This document shows, piece by piece, positions 6,189 through 13,638 of a stretch of DNA of 13,691 bases. Source of the stretch: a bacterium. Its GTDB lineage: Bacteria; AUK180. Position 1 is the first letter of the stretch; each line of letters starts with the position of its first letter. Below the pieces are notes generated by a model that saw only the letters and a list, made by a program, of their open reading frames with translations, was not told the origin of the DNA and did not search any database. The stretch spans positions 1-13,691 of the forward strand of contig JAUXGM010000050.1 in the NCBI GenBank assembly GCA_030622125.1. The letters are read 5' to 3'. The position numbers and the translations under genes are program-made.

Positions 6189-7178
6189 ATGATTACAATT
6201 GAAAGTTATTGCAAAAGGAATCTTATCTTATCTGTATTAAAGTTTATCCTTCTCCCCTTTTCATTTATCTATCTTTTAGGATTTTATCTTAAAAAATTGA
6301 TTACAAAAAAGTATCATTTAAAAAATGCCGTTGTAATTGGAAATATAACAATGGGTGGAACAGGTAAAACACCAATAACTATAATGCTTGCAAATTATTT
6401 TAAAAATTCAGTAATTGTAACAAGAGGATACTCAGGGAATTTTGAAGGAATAATTACAGATAAAAAAATTTCCGATGGATATTCCGATGAAACTCTGTTA
6501 TACATTGATAAAACGGAGAAAATACCGATAGTCGTTGGGAAAAATAGGATCAAATTATTAAAAGAAAAAAAAATTTATAAAGATAATATTTTAATATTTG
6601 ATGACGCAATGCAATATTTTCCTCTTGTTCCGGGAATAACCATCTGTCTCATAGACGGCAATTGTCCGTTCGGTAATAATTTTGTTATACCGTCAGGTAT
6701 TTTAAGAGAGCCCATTTCAAGATTAAAAAAATGTGATATTGTTTTAATTAAAGATATAAAGGGATTAAAAAATAATGCTTTAAAAAGGATTAAAAAATAT
6801 AAAAAGCCAATCTTTGGTTTTAAATATAAGAATATTGGGATATTTAATCTTAAAACGGATAAAAAAATAGAACCACCCGAAAAGGTAATCGCATTTTGCT
6901 CCATTGGAAATCCCAATTCATTCAAAGAGAGTCTATTAAAAGAGGGTATTGATATCAAAAAATTTTATAGATTTTCGGATCATTACAAATACAAAGAAAG
7001 GGATATAAAAAAAATAAAAGAAGCGAATTTACCTTTACTTACAACGGAAAAAGATGGAGTAAAACTTAAAAAATTAGATTTAAATGATATATATTTTTTA
7101 AAAATAGAACCGATGATCGATAATGAAAAGGATTTTTTAAATACAATTGGAGAATTATTTGAAAATAACAATAATTAG
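6189..7178 (+). CDS. lpxK: tetraacyldisaccharide 4'-kinase
   Basis: Transfers the gamma-phosphate of ATP to the 4' position of tetraacyldisaccharide-1-phosphate, making lipid IVA at the inner membrane's cytoplasmic face. 329 residues, normal length. An N-terminal membrane-associated hydrophobic segment (about 12-35) precedes the family P-loop GNITMGGTGKTP (51-62). It then has VTRGYSG (77-83), SDETLL (99-104, the GDEP region), FDDAMQYF (137-144, the DDGLQH region), SDHYKY (263-268, with the family His) and TTEKDGVKL (285-293). The DDGLQH block is altered to DDAMQY. The start at 6189 agrees with the family N-terminus and no alternative in-frame start is available, yet it lies 5 nt from a -10 box. 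First gene of a four-gene overlapping LPS operon. Confidence 0.93.
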   Translation: MITIESYCKRNLILSVLKFILLPFSFIYLLGFYLKKLITKKYHLKNAVVIGNITMGGTGKTPITIMLANYFKNSVIVTRGYSGNFEGIITDKKISDGYSDETLLYIDKTEKIPIVVGKNRIKLLKEKKIYKDNILIFDDAMQYFPLVPGITICLIDGNCPFGNNFVIPSGILREPISRLKKCDIVLIKDIKGLKNNALKRIKKYKKPIFGFKYKNIGIFNLKTDKKIEPPEKVIAFCSIGNPNSFKESLLKEGIDIKKFYRFSDHYKYKERDIKKIKEANLPLLTTEKDGVKLKKLDLNDIYFLKIEPMIDNEKDFLNTIGELFENNNN

Positions 7179-9602: not shown

Positions 9603-9653
9603 GTTAGAGGCATGCCCAGCACCAAGATGGTGCGGGGTGAAAGGTTAGAGGCA
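9603..9653 (+). repeat. GCACC/GGTGC hairpin element, copy 2
   Basis: CCCAGCACC (9615-9623), loop AAGAT, GGTGCGGGG (9629-9637), pairing 8 of 9. It is bracketed by the 10-nt direct repeat GTTAGAGGCA at 9603-9612 and 9644-9653. It lies 3 nt past the gmhB stop. No T-run follows, so it is not a canonical terminator, though it could stabilise the transcript end. Confidence 0.75.
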
Positions 9654-9730: not shown

Positions 9731-9769
9731 TGTCATTGCGAACCCCGAATATTTTCGAGGAGTGGCAAT
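9731..9769. repeat. nested palindromic dispersed repeat (TCATTGCGAACCCC type)
   Basis: Outer arms ATTGC (9735-9739) and GCAAT (9765-9769) enclose CCCCGA (9743-9748)/TCGAGG (9755-9760). The 18-nt inner core recurs with identical spacing and a different loop at 13673-13690. The first 12 bases recur inverted at 291-302. This is a dispersed intergenic palindrome family. Confidence 0.65.
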
Positions 9770-9790
9770 CTCCTGTCCGAACTCACAACT

Positions 9791-9985
9791 TTATCTTATA
9801 GCAACAACTTTTCCACGATCCTCATACCAATTCTGCCTTATTATCTGATAAGATCTAATTGATGTAGTATCAAAGTTTAATAATTTTAATGCTTCACTTG
9901 AGATTTTAATATGAACATCACTTACATGAGTACTGATAAAAATAAAAGTTTCAATAATAATAATAAATACCAAAAATTTTTTCAT
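9791..9985 (-). CDS. 64-residue secreted remnant of phospholipase C-like N-terminus
   Basis: The first 37 or so residues align without gaps to the start of the phospholipase C-like protein at 10686-11462. Both have a MKK signal peptide, then H20-x-SDVH25, then an AL pair near residue 32-33. The alignment is lost after that, and the protein ends at residue 64 (NWYEDRGKVVAIR), far short of any catalytic domain. It retains a perfect AGGAGG (9991-9996), 5 nt from its ATG, formed by the last two Arg codons of the preceding gene, so it is probably still translated. It is either a degraded gene copy or a small secreted product. Last gene of the six-gene operon. Confidence 0.6.
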   Translation of the reverse strand: MKKFLVFIIIIETFIFISTHVSDVHIKISSEALKLLNFDTTSIRSYQIIRQNWYEDRGKVVAIR

Positions 9986-9987
9986 AT

Positions 9988-10689
9988 TTACCTCCTATAT
10001 TCTAATGCAATCCCAAAAATATCATTACCATAATTTTTATAATACAACTTTACTCTAAAATTATTTATTTTATAAATAATACCTCCCATACCTGAAAATG
10101 CTAACGCAGGCATTAAAATATATGAAAAGTTAACATTAAAATTCAGGTAAATACCTAATTTTTTCATGGGATAAACTTCCCAATAAAGAGAAGGAATTAT
10201 GAAGAGAGCACCTTCCCATCGTATTAATTTTGTTTGAAAAATAAAAAACATATCCTTTTCTTGTTTTATTCTCGGCATATAACCTATAAACAAGAAATGA
10301 TGGCTTGAGGTTCGATATTCAATATTATATTTCCATAATAAATAACCAGAAGAATTTTGTGTAGTGGCATTTTTATATTCGTAACCAATTAAAAATTTAT
10401 TAAAAAATCTATAGATCATAAAAAATTCAGTTCCATACTCGTTTTCACCGAAATTTCCACAGTATATTGTTTTAAAGCCTATATTTAAATTTTTTATGAT
10501 CCCATAATTTACAAATAAATAATAGTTTAAAATATCATCATCAATAAAATCATTATTTACCAATTTATTAATACCTAATTCTAAATTTAATTGATTTTTT
10601 TCCATAAAAAAATTAAAATTACTTTCTTGATAAAATGAGTACCCTTCTACAAATAAGCCTATTATAAATAATATAATTATCTTCTTCAT
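9988..10689 (-). CDS. predicted secreted beta-barrel protein
   Basis: 233 residues. A signal peptide (about 1-18) is followed by aromatic/Asn-rich strands (LNLELGINKL, LNYYLFVNYGIIKNLNIGF, FFMIYRFFNKFLIGYEYKN, LGIYLNFNVNFSYILM, FRVKLYYKNYG, IFGIALEY). These are consistent with an outer-membrane barrel of roughly 10-12 strands. It is not obviously a copy of the 279-residue twins upstream. The ATG overlaps the stop of the preceding gene (ATGA), and the GAGGGAGAG ribosome-binding site lies inside that gene's duplicated tail. No family is recognised. Confidence 0.65.
   Translation of the reverse strand: MKKIIILFIIGLFVEGYSFYQESNFNFFMEKNQLNLELGINKLVNNDFIDDDILNYYLFVNYGIIKNLNIGFKTIYCGNFGENEYGTEFFMIYRFFNKFLIGYEYKNATTQNSSGYLLWKYNIEYRTSSHHFLFIGYMPRIKQEKDMFFIFQTKLIRWEGALFIIPSLYWEVYPMKKLGIYLNFNVNFSYILMPALAFSGMGGIIYKINNFRVKLYYKNYGNDIFGIALEYRR
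9991..9996 (-). promoter_or_regulatory. ribosome-binding site made from the preceding gene's last codons
   Basis: AGGAGG on the minus strand encodes the final Arg-Arg of the 9988-10689 protein and sits 5 nt before the ATG at 9985. It argues that the short downstream frame is a real translated unit. Confidence 0.7.
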
Positions 10690-10803
10690 CTCAACTCTCC
10701 CTCAACATAAAAAATTCTTATAAATTCTCCATCATTAGGATTATCTGAATTCATTCCTGAATACCAAATTTTTACCTTGTTCTTCTCATATTCATCATCA
10801 CCA
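10685..10803 (-). repeat. duplicated tail-plus-RBS module, copy 1
   Basis: About 119 nt aligning without gaps to 13130-13248. The distal 43 nt differ at only three positions and the other end is also well conserved, with a divergent 33-nt centre. It covers the last ~36 codons of the host gene, the GAGGGAGAG ribosome-binding site and the ATG of the following gene. In this copy the stop codon TAG has become TTG, extending the protein by Leu-Arg. Confidence 0.8.
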
Positions 10804-11462
10804 CCTATAATACCTGCATGTGGATCATTATGAACATGTGCAGGGACATTCATATCTTCTAATAAATGTATAATTCGACCCAATCTCCAAATTGAACCTC
10901 CAGGTTCAATTGGATTTATTTCGGAATCTCCATAATAATCAAAAATATCCTGTTTTTTCCAACCCATTACATCTTTATCACCAAGCCAGTAGTGCCTTGC
11001 TTTCTTAAATGCATTATCATAAGTCCCTAAATTAAGAGTATCCTCACATGTAATAATTCCCCCAATAATACGATAATATACTTTTGCTTTAGAAACTTTA
11101 TCATCTCCAAAAGGAAAATTATAATCTTGATTCCAAAAATGTGTACTTGTAGTAATTGGTAAAGATATTTTTGGTAACCCAAAATAAAGACATTTTGATG
11201 AATATGCTTTACAATTATAACCATAAATAGGATCACCTATTTCATCAGGATCTACTTCTGATAATTCTAAATCATCTTCTCTATTAGGTAAATCCTCAGT
11301 ATATGAACATTTTTTCAATGTATTAACAAAATTTGCATCATACCTTCCATAAGGAATAATATGAAGAGCTTGATCGGTAAGATATTTATGCACATCACTT
11401 TCATGAGCATAAATAAAAATACTTAATAATCCAAATAATAATATTAATAATAATTTTTTCAT
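10686..11462 (-). CDS. truncated zinc-dependent phospholipase C-like protein with grafted tail
   Basis: 258 residues. After a signal peptide (about 1-19), it shows the order of metal-ligand motifs of the zinc phospholipase C/S1-P1 nuclease superfamily: H20 and SDVH25 at the mature N-terminus, acidic TEDLP (55-59), STHFWNQD with H108, HLLEDMNVPAH (199-209) and HND.H (211-215), and DEYEK near 223-227. Family members normally continue about 100 residues beyond the last ligand. Here the protein switches to a tail (about 222-258: DDE.EKN.VKIWY...RIFYVEGE) that is also the end of the unrelated protein at 13137-13466. AGGAG (11470-11474) lies 7 nt upstream of the ATG, which overlaps the previous stop (ATGA). 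Activity is doubtful after the truncation. Confidence 0.65.
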   Translation of the reverse strand: MKKLLLILLFGLLSIFIYAHESDVHKYLTDQALHIIPYGRYDANFVNTLKKCSYTEDLPNREDDLELSEVDPDEIGDPIYGYNCKAYSSKCLYFGLPKISLPITTSTHFWNQDYNFPFGDDKVSKAKVYYRIIGGIITCEDTLNLGTYDNAFKKARHYWLGDKDVMGWKKQDIFDYYGDSEINPIEPGGSIWRLGRIIHLLEDMNVPAHVHNDPHAGIIGGDDEYEKNKVKIWYSGMNSDNPNDGEFIRIFYVEGELR

Positions 11463-12298
11463 AAATCAACTCCTATTATAAAATTTATGGGGAATATTTT
11501 GTAATATTTTCTTTCTGTCGAAGAAATTAATCTATCTAAACTTAAAACCAATGATAAATTTATATTTTTATATTTATATGAAAAATATGCACTTAGATCA
11601 CTCGAATAATCGTCCTGATGAGGATCATAATCAACCCCATCTAAAGAAATATGTATTGAACTTAAATTTATAACAGTTCTATAAAGGATAAAGCCGAAAT
11701 TAATTTTTTTTTCACTTAAAAATTCAAGTATAGTAAAACGCTCAAAACTAATAAATTTAAAATAATTTTTTAAATAAAATTCAAAATAAATATTATCAAG
11801 ATAGCCAAATGTCCAATCTCTATTTTCAAAGTAAACCTTTTTTGTATCTGGGAAATATCTAATATTATAAATAAAACCTATTTTTAAATTAACATATTGC
11901 CCTATTCTTATTTTTGATACCGCAGATAATTCTAATAAAAAAAGAACTAAATTCTTCTCATTCACAAGTAGTGTCATATTATTTAATCCTGGTTTGGTAA
12001 ATTCTTTATTTAAGTATATTTTTTTATCATAATTTCCAAAGACAGGCGAGATATTAAATTCAGCATATTTTAGGTTTATCTTATAATTAAATTTTATTCT
12101 ATAATTTTCATAAAGATAGAAATAACTATTTCCATTAACAGTATAAGGAACTAATTCTCTAGCTTCCTTATCAAAATCATCATAATAATAATTAAAATCT
12201 GATGAAAAGAAATGATTCAGTGATAATTCAAGACTTAAATTTTTTCCTGAAATTAAGATGAAAAATGTAATCATAAAAAATATTGTGATTTTTTTCAT
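11459..12298 (-). CDS. predicted beta-barrel protein, twin B
   Basis: 279 residues, the same length as its upstream neighbour and clearly a tandem duplicate. The first 41 residues are identical, as are IGFIYNIRYFPDTKK, LEFLSEKK and QDDYSS, with strongly diverged segments between. A signal peptide lies at about 1-19. The rest is alternating aromatic/polar strands, probably an outer-membrane or periplasmic barrel. GGAGG (12306-12310) is 7 nt before the ATG, which overlaps the previous stop (ATGA). No family is recognised. Confidence 0.7.
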   Translation of the reverse strand: MKKITIFFMITFFILISGKNLSLELSLNHFFSSDFNYYYDDFDKEARELVPYTVNGNSYFYLYENYRIKFNYKINLKYAEFNISPVFGNYDKKIYLNKEFTKPGLNNMTLLVNEKNLVLFLLELSAVSKIRIGQYVNLKIGFIYNIRYFPDTKKVYFENRDWTFGYLDNIYFEFYLKNYFKFISFERFTILEFLSEKKINFGFILYRTVINLSSIHISLDGVDYDPHQDDYSSDLSAYFSYKYKNINLSLVLSLDRLISSTERKYYKIFPINFIIGVDL

Positions 12299-13134
12299 AA
12301 TTCAACCTCCAATTTTAGATTTATTGGAAATATTTTATGATAATATTTCTCATCTGCTAAAACAATAAACCTATATATACTTAAATTTAAAATAATCTTT
12401 AAAAATTTATATTTATATGTAAAAAACATACTTAAAGGACTTGAATAATCATCCTGATAAAGATCGCTATATCTTAAAGAAATATACAATAAGCTTAAAT
12501 TTTTAACGCCTCCATAAATAATAAAGCCGAAATTAAATTTTTTTTCACTTAAAAATTCCAAAATCCATGTCCGCTCAAAACTATAAAATTTAAACCAATT
12601 CTTTAAATACAACTCAAGATAGATATTGCCAAGATAACCCAATGTCCACCAGGTATTATTGTCATAATAAAACTTTTTTGTATCAGGAAAATATCTGATA
12701 TTATAAATAAAACCAATTTTTAAATAATCATCTTTTCTTATTCTTATTTTTGATACCACAGATAATTTTAATAAAAAGAGAAGTAAATTCTTTTCATATT
12801 TTAATAAAGTCAATTTTTCAAGTTCATAACCATGTGGATCGTCATTTTTATATATTCTTTTATCATAGATTCCAACGATTGGTGAAATATTAATTTGAAA
12901 AATATTTAATGGAATTTTGTAATTCAATTTTAATCTGGCATTTTCGTAAAGATAATAATATCTTGTTTGGTCATAAGTATAAGGAGCTAAAATACTGGCT
13001 TCTTTATCAACATCATCATAGTAATAATTAAAATCAGATGAAAAGAAATGATTAAGTGACAATTCAAGACTTAAATTTTTTCCTGAAATTAAGATAAAAA
13101 ATGTAATCATAAAAAATATTGTGATTTTCTTCAT
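12295..13134 (-). CDS. predicted beta-barrel protein, twin A
   Basis: 279 residues, a tandem paralogue of the gene at 11459-12298. The signal peptide and first ~24 mature residues are identical, and the DNA differs at about six positions in the first 115 nt. Divergence then rises, especially in the charged/aromatic loop segments (residues 45-60, 95-110, 150-160, 215-225), while several strands stay the same. Translation starts 2 nt after the stop of the preceding gene, from the GAGGGAGAG site inside its duplicated tail. Probable envelope barrel of unknown role. Confidence 0.7.
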   Translation of the reverse strand: MKKITIFFMITFFILISGKNLSLELSLNHFFSSDFNYYYDDVDKEASILAPYTYDQTRYYYLYENARLKLNYKIPLNIFQINISPIVGIYDKRIYKNDDPHGYELEKLTLLKYEKNLLLFLLKLSVVSKIRIRKDDYLKIGFIYNIRYFPDTKKFYYDNNTWWTLGYLGNIYLELYLKNWFKFYSFERTWILEFLSEKKFNFGFIIYGGVKNLSLLYISLRYSDLYQDDYSSPLSMFFTYKYKFLKIILNLSIYRFIVLADEKYYHKIFPINLKLEVEL

Positions 13135-13248
13135 CTCTACTCTCCCTCAACATAAAATATTCTCATAAATTCACTATCCAAAAGATAATTTAAATTTACT
13201 CCCACATACCAGATTTTTACCCAATTCTTTTCATTTTCATCATCACCA
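13130..13248 (-). repeat. duplicated tail-plus-RBS module, copy 2
   Basis: Partner of 10685-10803. It encodes GDDENEKN, VKIWY, EF.RIFYVEGE and then TAG, followed after 2 nt by the next gene's ATG. Confidence 0.8.
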
Positions 13249-13466
13249 TAACCGGTATAATACATCAAATATTTCCCACTCACTTTTAAAACACAGAGAT
13301 CGGAGACGAATAGTGAATCAAATTCCCCTGAACTTCCAACATCCAAAACAAGCTGTGGTGAACTAATGTTAAAAGCTATTGGTTCATTTGATTGCCCCTC
13401 TATTGATATAACTGATATAAAAAATGCAATAAAAACAACAAAGCCAACTGTCTTGAGATTTTTCAT
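13137..13466 (-). CDS. secreted beta-propeller (glycosidase-like) blade fragment
   Basis: 109 residues. After a signal peptide (about 1-25), residues 47-72 (GEFDSLFVSD, then CVLKVSGKYLMYYTG) resemble one blade of the five-bladed propeller of GH43/GH32-type proteins, where F-D-S...D-P..(V/L)K..GkY.MyYtG is typical. The usual DP is DL here. A full propeller needs about 300 residues, so this is a fragment, ending in the shared tail found in the phospholipase C-like protein. AGGAGG (13471-13476) lies 4 nt before the ATG and a strong promoter is just upstream, so this is the first gene of the operon and probably expressed. The carbohydrate assignment is tentative. Confidence 0.55.
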   Translation of the reverse strand: MKNLKTVGFVVFIAFFISVISIEGQSNEPIAFNISSPQLVLDVGSSGEFDSLFVSDLCVLKVSGKYLMYYTGYGDDENEKNWVKIWYVGVNLNYLLDSEFMRIFYVEGE

Positions 13467-13483
13467 AACACCTCCTATATTTA

Positions 13484-13512
13484 ATTATAATCCAATCTTT
13501 CTAAAAAATCAA
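13484..13512 (-). promoter_or_regulatory. promoter of the six-gene minus-strand operon
   Basis: On the minus strand, TTGATT (13507-13512), a 17-nt spacer and a perfect TATAAT (13484-13489). The leader would be about 11-15 nt and contains AGGAGG. No comparable promoter was noticed inside the operon, and every downstream junction overlaps or nearly abuts. Confidence 0.65.
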
Positions 13513-13584: not shown

Positions 13585-13638
13585 GTGAAGAAGCATGCCC
13601 AGCACCGTGAAACTGGTGCGGGGTAAAAAGTGAAGAAG
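13585..13638 (+). repeat. GCACC/GGTGC hairpin element, copy 3
   Basis: CCCAGCACC (13598-13606), an 8-nt loop, GGTGCGGGG (13615-13623). It is bracketed by the direct repeat GTGAAGAAG at 13585-13593 and 13630-13638. It shares GCATGCCCAGCACC exactly with copy 2. The right flank continues into short AAGTGAG/AAGTAAA units. Confidence 0.75.

What the first reader, a model, noticed from the sequence alone, without database searches (positions are those of the whole stretch)
9791..13512. Six-gene coupled operon alternating truncated secreted-enzyme fragments with barrel proteins
Seen: one strong promoter, then six signal-peptide genes whose starts overlap or nearly abut the previous stop, with each ribosome-binding site built into the previous gene's last codons. 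Three encode whole barrel-like proteins. The other three encode only the front parts of secreted proteins (one propeller blade; a phospholipase C-like domain cut after its zinc motifs; the first ~37 residues of a phospholipase C-like protein). Inference: the locus duplicates and swaps enzyme modules in front of barrel genes while keeping translation intact. It may be a decaying array, or a device making small secreted partners for each barrel. This is the best candidate here for an undescribed system.
Basis: partly seen in the sequence, partly recalled or inferred. Interest (0 to 1): 0.75.

Follow-up and report, generated by a model that had tools for sequence, protein, structure and literature searches.

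The report
Fused leader genes before porin genes
In an uncultured bacterial family, a set of genes for secreted enzymes and outer-membrane pores has been repeatedly duplicated and cut, leaving shortened, stitched-together enzyme genes that still hand the ribosome on to the pore gene behind them; the rearrangement is unusual and recurs independently, but the shortened proteins themselves are probably leftovers.

Summary
Six minus-strand ORFs (9791-13466) lie behind one promoter, joined by 4-nt ATGA overlaps or 2-nt gaps. Order is fragment-barrel-barrel-fragment-barrel-fragment, so not strictly alternating. g1 is a glycosidase-like propeller with an internal deletion: front blade joined to its C-terminal tail. 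g4 is a PLC-like front joined to that same propeller tail. g6 is a 64-codon PLC stub.

Family-level relatives have an inferred parent order propeller-barrel-PLC, with full-length propellers, and their own, different chimeras. All seven clear junctions keep the native frame of the tail or barrel. All seven strong copies of the tail in the phylum sit directly before a barrel, and the tail carries the barrel's ribosome-binding site. The promoter is conserved at eight loci. The barrel model best fits KdgM/NanC-type 12-strand oligosaccharide porins.

Best explanation: recurrent tandem duplication and deletion in a secreted-enzyme/porin operon. Barrels are kept, and enzyme remnants persist because in-frame leaders preserve coupled translation of the barrels. 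Some relatives show stubs, stops and frameshifts in the enzyme parts, or barrels alone. A 'small secreted partner' role has no positive support. New variant of a known kind; interest 0.4.

The parts
13484..13512 (-). sigma-70-type promoter TTGATT-17-TATAAT
   Evidence: same layout upstream of propeller-type fronts at eight loci; homologous upstream region in G002 (72% over 348 nt)
13137..13466 (-). g1, 109 aa: propeller signal peptide and blade 1 (13242-13466) fused in frame to the propeller C-terminal tail (13137-13241)
   Evidence: front 56% identical to full-length G001 propeller residues 25-96; tail aligns with the last ~30 residues
13106..13248 (-). copy 1 of the 143-nt tail plus barrel-start repeat
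   Evidence: 80% identical to 10661-10803
12295..13134 (-). g2, 279-aa barrel with signal peptide
   Evidence: tandem duplicate of g3, dN/dS 0.35
11459..12298 (-). g3, 279-aa barrel; ATGA overlap with g2
   Evidence: AlphaFold2 model pLDDT 66, pTM 0.66; best fold matches are KdgM/NanC/VhGalP-type porins
10686..11462 (-). g4, 258 aa: zinc-PLC-like front (10785-11462) fused in frame to the propeller tail (10686-10784); ATGA overlap with g3
10661..10803 (-). copy 2 of the 143-nt tail plus barrel-start repeat
9988..10689 (-). g5, 233-aa divergent barrel of the same family; ATGA overlap with g4
   Evidence: profile match E 9.4e-39; the profile A3 included this sequence
9791..9985 (-). g6, 64-aa PLC-like N-terminal stub
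   Evidence: E 1.1e-9; the profile included this sequence; weak coding score
9614..9637 (+). REP-like palindrome downstream of the operon
   Evidence: 16 copies in this genome, none in the other six of the phylum
13597..13623 (+). REP-like palindrome upstream of the operon

Best explanation
The operon descends from a unit in the order secreted glycosidase-like propeller, outer-membrane barrel (probably a 12-strand oligosaccharide-type porin), secreted PLC-like enzyme. Repeated tandem duplications and deletions with short-homology breakpoints multiplied the barrels and cut the enzymes. A duplication running from the propeller's 3' tail through the barrel into the PLC gene leaves exactly PLC-front/propeller-tail/barrel (g4-g5). 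A deletion between blade 1 and a tail copy leaves g1. The shortened fronts stay open because they are translated leaders: they supply the promoter, and termination at the native stop feeds ribosomes to the overlapping barrel start, whose binding site lies in the tail's last codons. Shown: parent genes in relatives, chimeric joins, in-frame junctions, tail-barrel linkage, conserved promoter. Inferred: the parent order, termination-reinitiation, barrels as the selected product, porin substrate.
For: Parent order: G001 C1 (propeller, barrel, then PLC genes) and G003 C11 and C26. Independent chimeras with other junctions: G003 C2 PLC|tail, G003 C11 PLC|tail, G001 PLC|mature barrel, G002 C219 propeller-front|tail, G003 C33 propeller start|barrel. 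With g1 and g4 that is 7 of 7 clear junctions in frame with the back part; counting only 5-6 as independent, chance is 1/243 to 1/729. Tail search: all seven strong hits lie directly before a barrel. Barrel exchange between loci: G003 C11 second barrel and C38 third barrel are 94.7% identical over 131 nt, starting at the ribosome-binding site. Barrels kept while enzyme parts erode: G003 C38 has a 39-codon propeller stub then three barrels; G002 C149 has a tail relic full of stops before an open barrel; G004 barrels stand alone. Literature: the last 15 nt of an upstream gene suffice for termination-reinitiation in tested E. coli pairs (PMC10666635).
Against: G003 propellers are full length with dN/dS 0.15, so enzymes are selected there. 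The chance of g1 and g4 staying open under neutrality is low if they are old (g4: 0.012 at 0.1 substitutions per site, about 0 at 0.23), which would also fit function of the fragment proteins; their age is unknown. One tail precedes a non-barrel secreted ORF (G002 C219). No expression data.
Confidence: 0.62

Rival explanations
1. Plain decay: the fragments are pseudogene remains with no role at all, not even as leaders, and their open frames mean only that the events are recent.
For: G002 and G003 copies show stops, frameshifts and stubs; G001 PLC-front copies have dN/dS 0.59, near what one relaxed copy would give; g6 scores weakly as coding.
Against: 7 of 7 clear junctions in frame; g4 has 258 codons with no stop in frame and strong codon bias; g1/g4 tails have diverged to dS 0.46, so at least one chimera is probably not very recent.
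Confidence: 0.2
2. The chimeric proteins are functional: small secreted partners (chaperone, plug or substrate-binding piece) for the barrel encoded next to them.
For: [quoted passage not shown] tail residues IW, G, N and FxRIF are invariant in the six copies aligned; ORFs are open.
Against: Barrels without any fragment (g3, G003 C38, G004); fronts of unrelated kinds and many lengths; one tail before a non-barrel gene; the tail is the last strand of the propeller, so its conservation may predate the fusion. The g4 model was uninformative.
Confidence: 0.12
3. Assembly artefact: repeats mis-joined in metagenome bins.
For: Several of these arrays sit at contig ends; g2/g3 share exact runs of 35 and 32 nt.
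Against: The longest exact match between the two tail copies is 19 nt, short for an assembler join; the copies differ by 20%; joins are in frame; four separate bins show the pattern.
Confidence: 0.04

Closest known systems
KdgM/NanC/VhGalP 12-strand acidic-oligosaccharide porins (PDB 4fqe, 2wjq, 8xua)
   Same: Best fold matches to the g3 model (Z 14.4-14.9); next to a glycosidase-like gene in the inferred parent operon.
   Different: No Pfam match at E 1, sequence identity 5-11%; other 12-strand barrels (COG4313, FapF, autotransporter domains) score Z 12-14.8, so only the fold class is indicated.
GH130 / GH117 / GH43-like five-blade propellers
   Same: Full-length G001 propeller passes the GH130 Pfam cut-off (29.5 against 26 bits); profile matches GH117 and GH130 structures.
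   Different: g1 keeps only blade 1 and the last strands, so it is unlikely to be a working enzyme by itself.
Zinc-dependent phospholipase C (PF00882)
   Same: HLLEDMNVPAHVHND-type metal motif; weak Pfam hit for the G001 copy (E 0.017).
   Different: Below the family cut-off; g4 lacks everything after the last metal motif; g6 is only the N-terminus.
Orphan modules of CDI/Rhs polymorphic toxin loci (PMC4927057, PMC3967940)
   Same: Works somewhat alike as an evolutionary layout: truncated gene pieces beside paralogous modules produced by recombination.
   Different: No toxin or immunity pair was recognised here; the repeated downstream element is a barrel and the front is what varies.
Translationally coupled leader ORFs / termination-reinitiation pairs (PMC10666635, PMC12548453)
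   Same: 4-nt ATGA overlaps, ribosome-binding site inside the upstream gene's end.
   Different: Here the leader is a chimera of unrelated enzyme genes, made anew several times.

Membership tests
KdgM-like porins | 12-strand outer-membrane barrel fold | tested here: inconclusive
   Model of moderate confidence (pLDDT 66); top Z 14.9 but tied with other 12-strand barrels
KdgM-like porins | sequence match to a KdgM/porin Pfam family | tested here: not met
   No Pfam family at E 1 for g2, g3 or g5
GH130/GH117 glycosidase | complete five-blade propeller with catalytic residues | tested here: not met
   g1 has 109 aa, blade 1 plus tail only
Zinc-dependent phospholipase C | match to PF00882 | tested here: not met
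   g4 has no Pfam hit at E 1; the G001 relative hits at E 0.017, under the cut-off
Zinc-dependent phospholipase C | complete domain beyond the HxxxD...H motif | tested here: not met
   g4 switches to the propeller tail just after DDEYE
Translationally coupled gene pair | start-stop overlap of 1 or 4 nt or a very short gap | tested here: met
Translationally coupled gene pair | downstream translation depends on upstream translation | not testable with these tools
   needs reporter fusions
CDI/Rhs orphan modules | toxin domain with immunity gene | not tested
   no dedicated toxin or immunity search was run; the repeated downstream genes are barrels

The most novel reading that the evidence does not exclude
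The family uses interchangeable expression parts: a promoter plus signal-peptide front and a ribosome-binding-site tail that recombination places before different outer-membrane porins (and at least once another secreted protein), so that porins can be swapped into coupled expression sites, a recombination-driven way of changing the outer membrane.
Probability: 0.13. Interest if true: 0.7.

Novelty: new variant of a known kind. Interest (0 to 1): 0.4.

Why it matters
It is a natural series, within one small bacterial family, from intact secreted enzyme to chimeric leader to 39-codon stub to a barrel standing alone, with the reading frame kept at each clear join. That makes a general question testable: does the need to keep ribosomes coupled to a downstream gene preserve otherwise dead coding sequence in operons? 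It also warns annotators that short 'secreted enzyme' genes in front of porins may be leaders rather than enzymes.

Tried and rejected
AlphaFold2 on g4 with four sequences gave no usable model (pLDDT 36). Pfam gave nothing significant for any of the six proteins. Rfam found nothing in the window. The genome-contig scan found only the same relatives plus distant propellers. A single ancestral PLC|tail chimera shared by G000 and G003 was considered because the junctions lie within about five codons, but each tail resembles the propeller tail of its own side more (G003's own propellers for C2, the G001 propeller for g4), so separate origin or gene conversion is likelier; not settled. A pairing of barrel and giant C-terminally sorted protein like SprF/SprB was considered: the G001 PLC continuation and the G003 S8 giant carry Por_Secre_tail, but the barrels match no known family.

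Full report
Setting. The window is a whole contig (C119) of a 2.08-Mb genome in 192 contigs, apparently a metagenome bin (G000). Seven genomes of its phylum are held; four others share its family, in three other genera, and none shares its genus. Relatives that carry related loci include public bins JAGLWT (G001), JAGGYO (G002) and CALMGJ (G003), identified by matching contig lengths.

The observation. Six minus-strand ORFs follow one promoter. Coordinates and overlaps were confirmed: three ATGA overlaps, two 2-nt gaps. The order is fragment-barrel-barrel-fragment-barrel-fragment, so 'alternating' is not exact. The promoter TTGATT-17-TATAAT lies 17 nt before g1. The same layout precedes propeller-type fronts at seven other places in G001, G002 and G003; the summed hexamer score is 85 against a shuffled mean of 62.6 and maximum of 68.

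What the fragments are. Full-length propellers in relatives (G001 351 aa, G003 318 and 320 aa) begin like g1 and end in a tail of about 30 residues, KIRIWFTGxNSxHPxxxxFMRIF, that overlaps or abuts the barrel start. g1 matches the front up to about codon 75 and then jumps to that tail. g4 matches PLC-like proteins up to DDEYE, just after the last metal motif, and then also enters the propeller tail. g1 and g4 share an 80%-identical 143-nt stretch made of the tail and the first codons of the next barrel. At the g1 junction the similarity to the propeller front and to the g4-type tail overlaps by about 15 nt (GATGATGAAnATGA), which fits a short-homology join. g6 is a PLC N-terminus of 64 codons with weak coding score.

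The inferred parent unit and its variants. G001: propeller, barrel, PLC-front fused in frame to a barrel lacking its own signal peptide, then a PLC gene split by a frameshift into an ORF that ends in a Por secretion tail. G003 C11: propeller, barrel, PLC-front|tail, next barrel running off the contig. G003 C26: propeller, barrel, PLC-front running off the contig. G003 C2: PLC|tail, barrel, broken PLC gene. G002 C219: propeller front joined to the tail at GEF, with a frameshift in the signal peptide, before a non-barrel secreted ORF. G003 C33: a barrel that begins with the propeller promoter and first codons. G003 C38: a 39-codon propeller stub, then three barrels. G002 C149: a tail relic with stops before an open barrel. 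G004: barrels with no fragment. The simplest history is parent order propeller-barrel-PLC, tandem duplication with breakpoints in the PLC gene and the propeller tail (giving g4-g5), and deletions (giving g1, C219 and C38). The parent order is inferred; the present layouts are shown.

Frame and selection. Seven junctions have a recognisable back part (g1, g4, G003 C2, C11 and C33, G001, G002 C219), and all seven are in the native frame of that tail or barrel. Fronts and tails were found by searches independent of each other's frame. Not all are independent (g1 and g4 share a tail), so the chance figure is about 1/243 to 1/729. C38 has no tail and is not counted. Neutral simulation says g4 would stay stop-free with probability 0.012 after 0.1 substitutions per site and about zero after 0.23; for g1 0.16 and 0.03. 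The ages of the joins are not known, so this is suggestive only. dN/dS: g2/g3 0.35, G003 propellers 0.15, g1/g4 tails 0.45, G001 PLC-front copies 0.59. The barrels and intact propellers are clearly constrained; the fragments are not clearly constrained at protein level.

Barrels. Profile search ties g2, g3, g5 and relatives' barrels into one divergent family (members of the profile match by construction, while G004 and C38 barrels are new). The g3 model is beta-rich and matches 12-strand porins best, KdgM/NanC/VhGalP at Z 14.4-14.9, with other 12-strand barrels close behind. With a GH130/GH117-like propeller as neighbour, oligosaccharide uptake is a reasonable but untested inference. G003 C11 and C38 barrels share 94.7% over 131 nt starting at the ribosome-binding site, so barrel genes appear to move between loci as units.

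How it most likely works. Each front supplies promoter, start and signal peptide; its ribosomes terminate at the native stop and restart on the overlapping barrel start, whose binding site is in the tail's last codons. In tested E. coli pairs, the last 15 nt of the upstream gene are enough for such reinitiation (PMC10666635). Out-of-frame joins would end translation away from that stop, which would explain why the joins are in frame. The encoded fragment proteins are then by-products. This leader role is inferred; rivals are plain decay, functional fragments and, least likely, misassembly (longest exact match between the tail copies 19 nt).

Verdict. A real and recurrent rearrangement, explainable by known processes: tandem duplication, deletion, coupled translation.

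Noticed in passing
window 9614-9637 and 13597-13623: A palindromic element GCCCAGCACC-n-GGTGCGGGG flanks the operon on both sides; 16 exact copies in this genome, none in the six other genomes of the phylum.
   Followed up: partly
window 9733-9772: A second dispersed-looking repeat (TCATTGCGA...GAGTGGCAATCTC) begins 18 nt beyond the end of g6; it may mark the point where a longer PLC gene was lost.
   Followed up: no
L051 369-7100 (G000 C137): Second locus in the same genome with a similar layout: a 191-aa secreted fragment with a subtilase prodomain match overlaps (ATGA) a barrel-like ORF, followed by an intact 1829-aa S8 protease with a propeller-like segment.
   Followed up: partly
L020 6509-6575 and L021 1166-1232: Signal-peptide-coding stretches of two otherwise dissimilar barrel-like genes in different genera are 91% identical over 67 nt.
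   Followed up: no
L019 5688-5779 and L052 6399-6488: 3' ends of a broken PLC-type giant and an S8-protease giant in G003 share 88% over 92 nt, so C-terminal sorting domains also recombine.
   Followed up: no
window 13045-13134 and 12209-12298: First 30 codons of g2 and g3 are identical in protein, dS 0.29 against 0.67 overall, with exact runs of 35 and 32 nt; possible gene conversion.
   Followed up: partly
L019 about 6190-6300 and L020 about 11000-11130: PLC-type genes in G003 and G001 are each interrupted by a frameshift at different places; decay, sequencing error or phase variation cannot be told apart.
   Followed up: no
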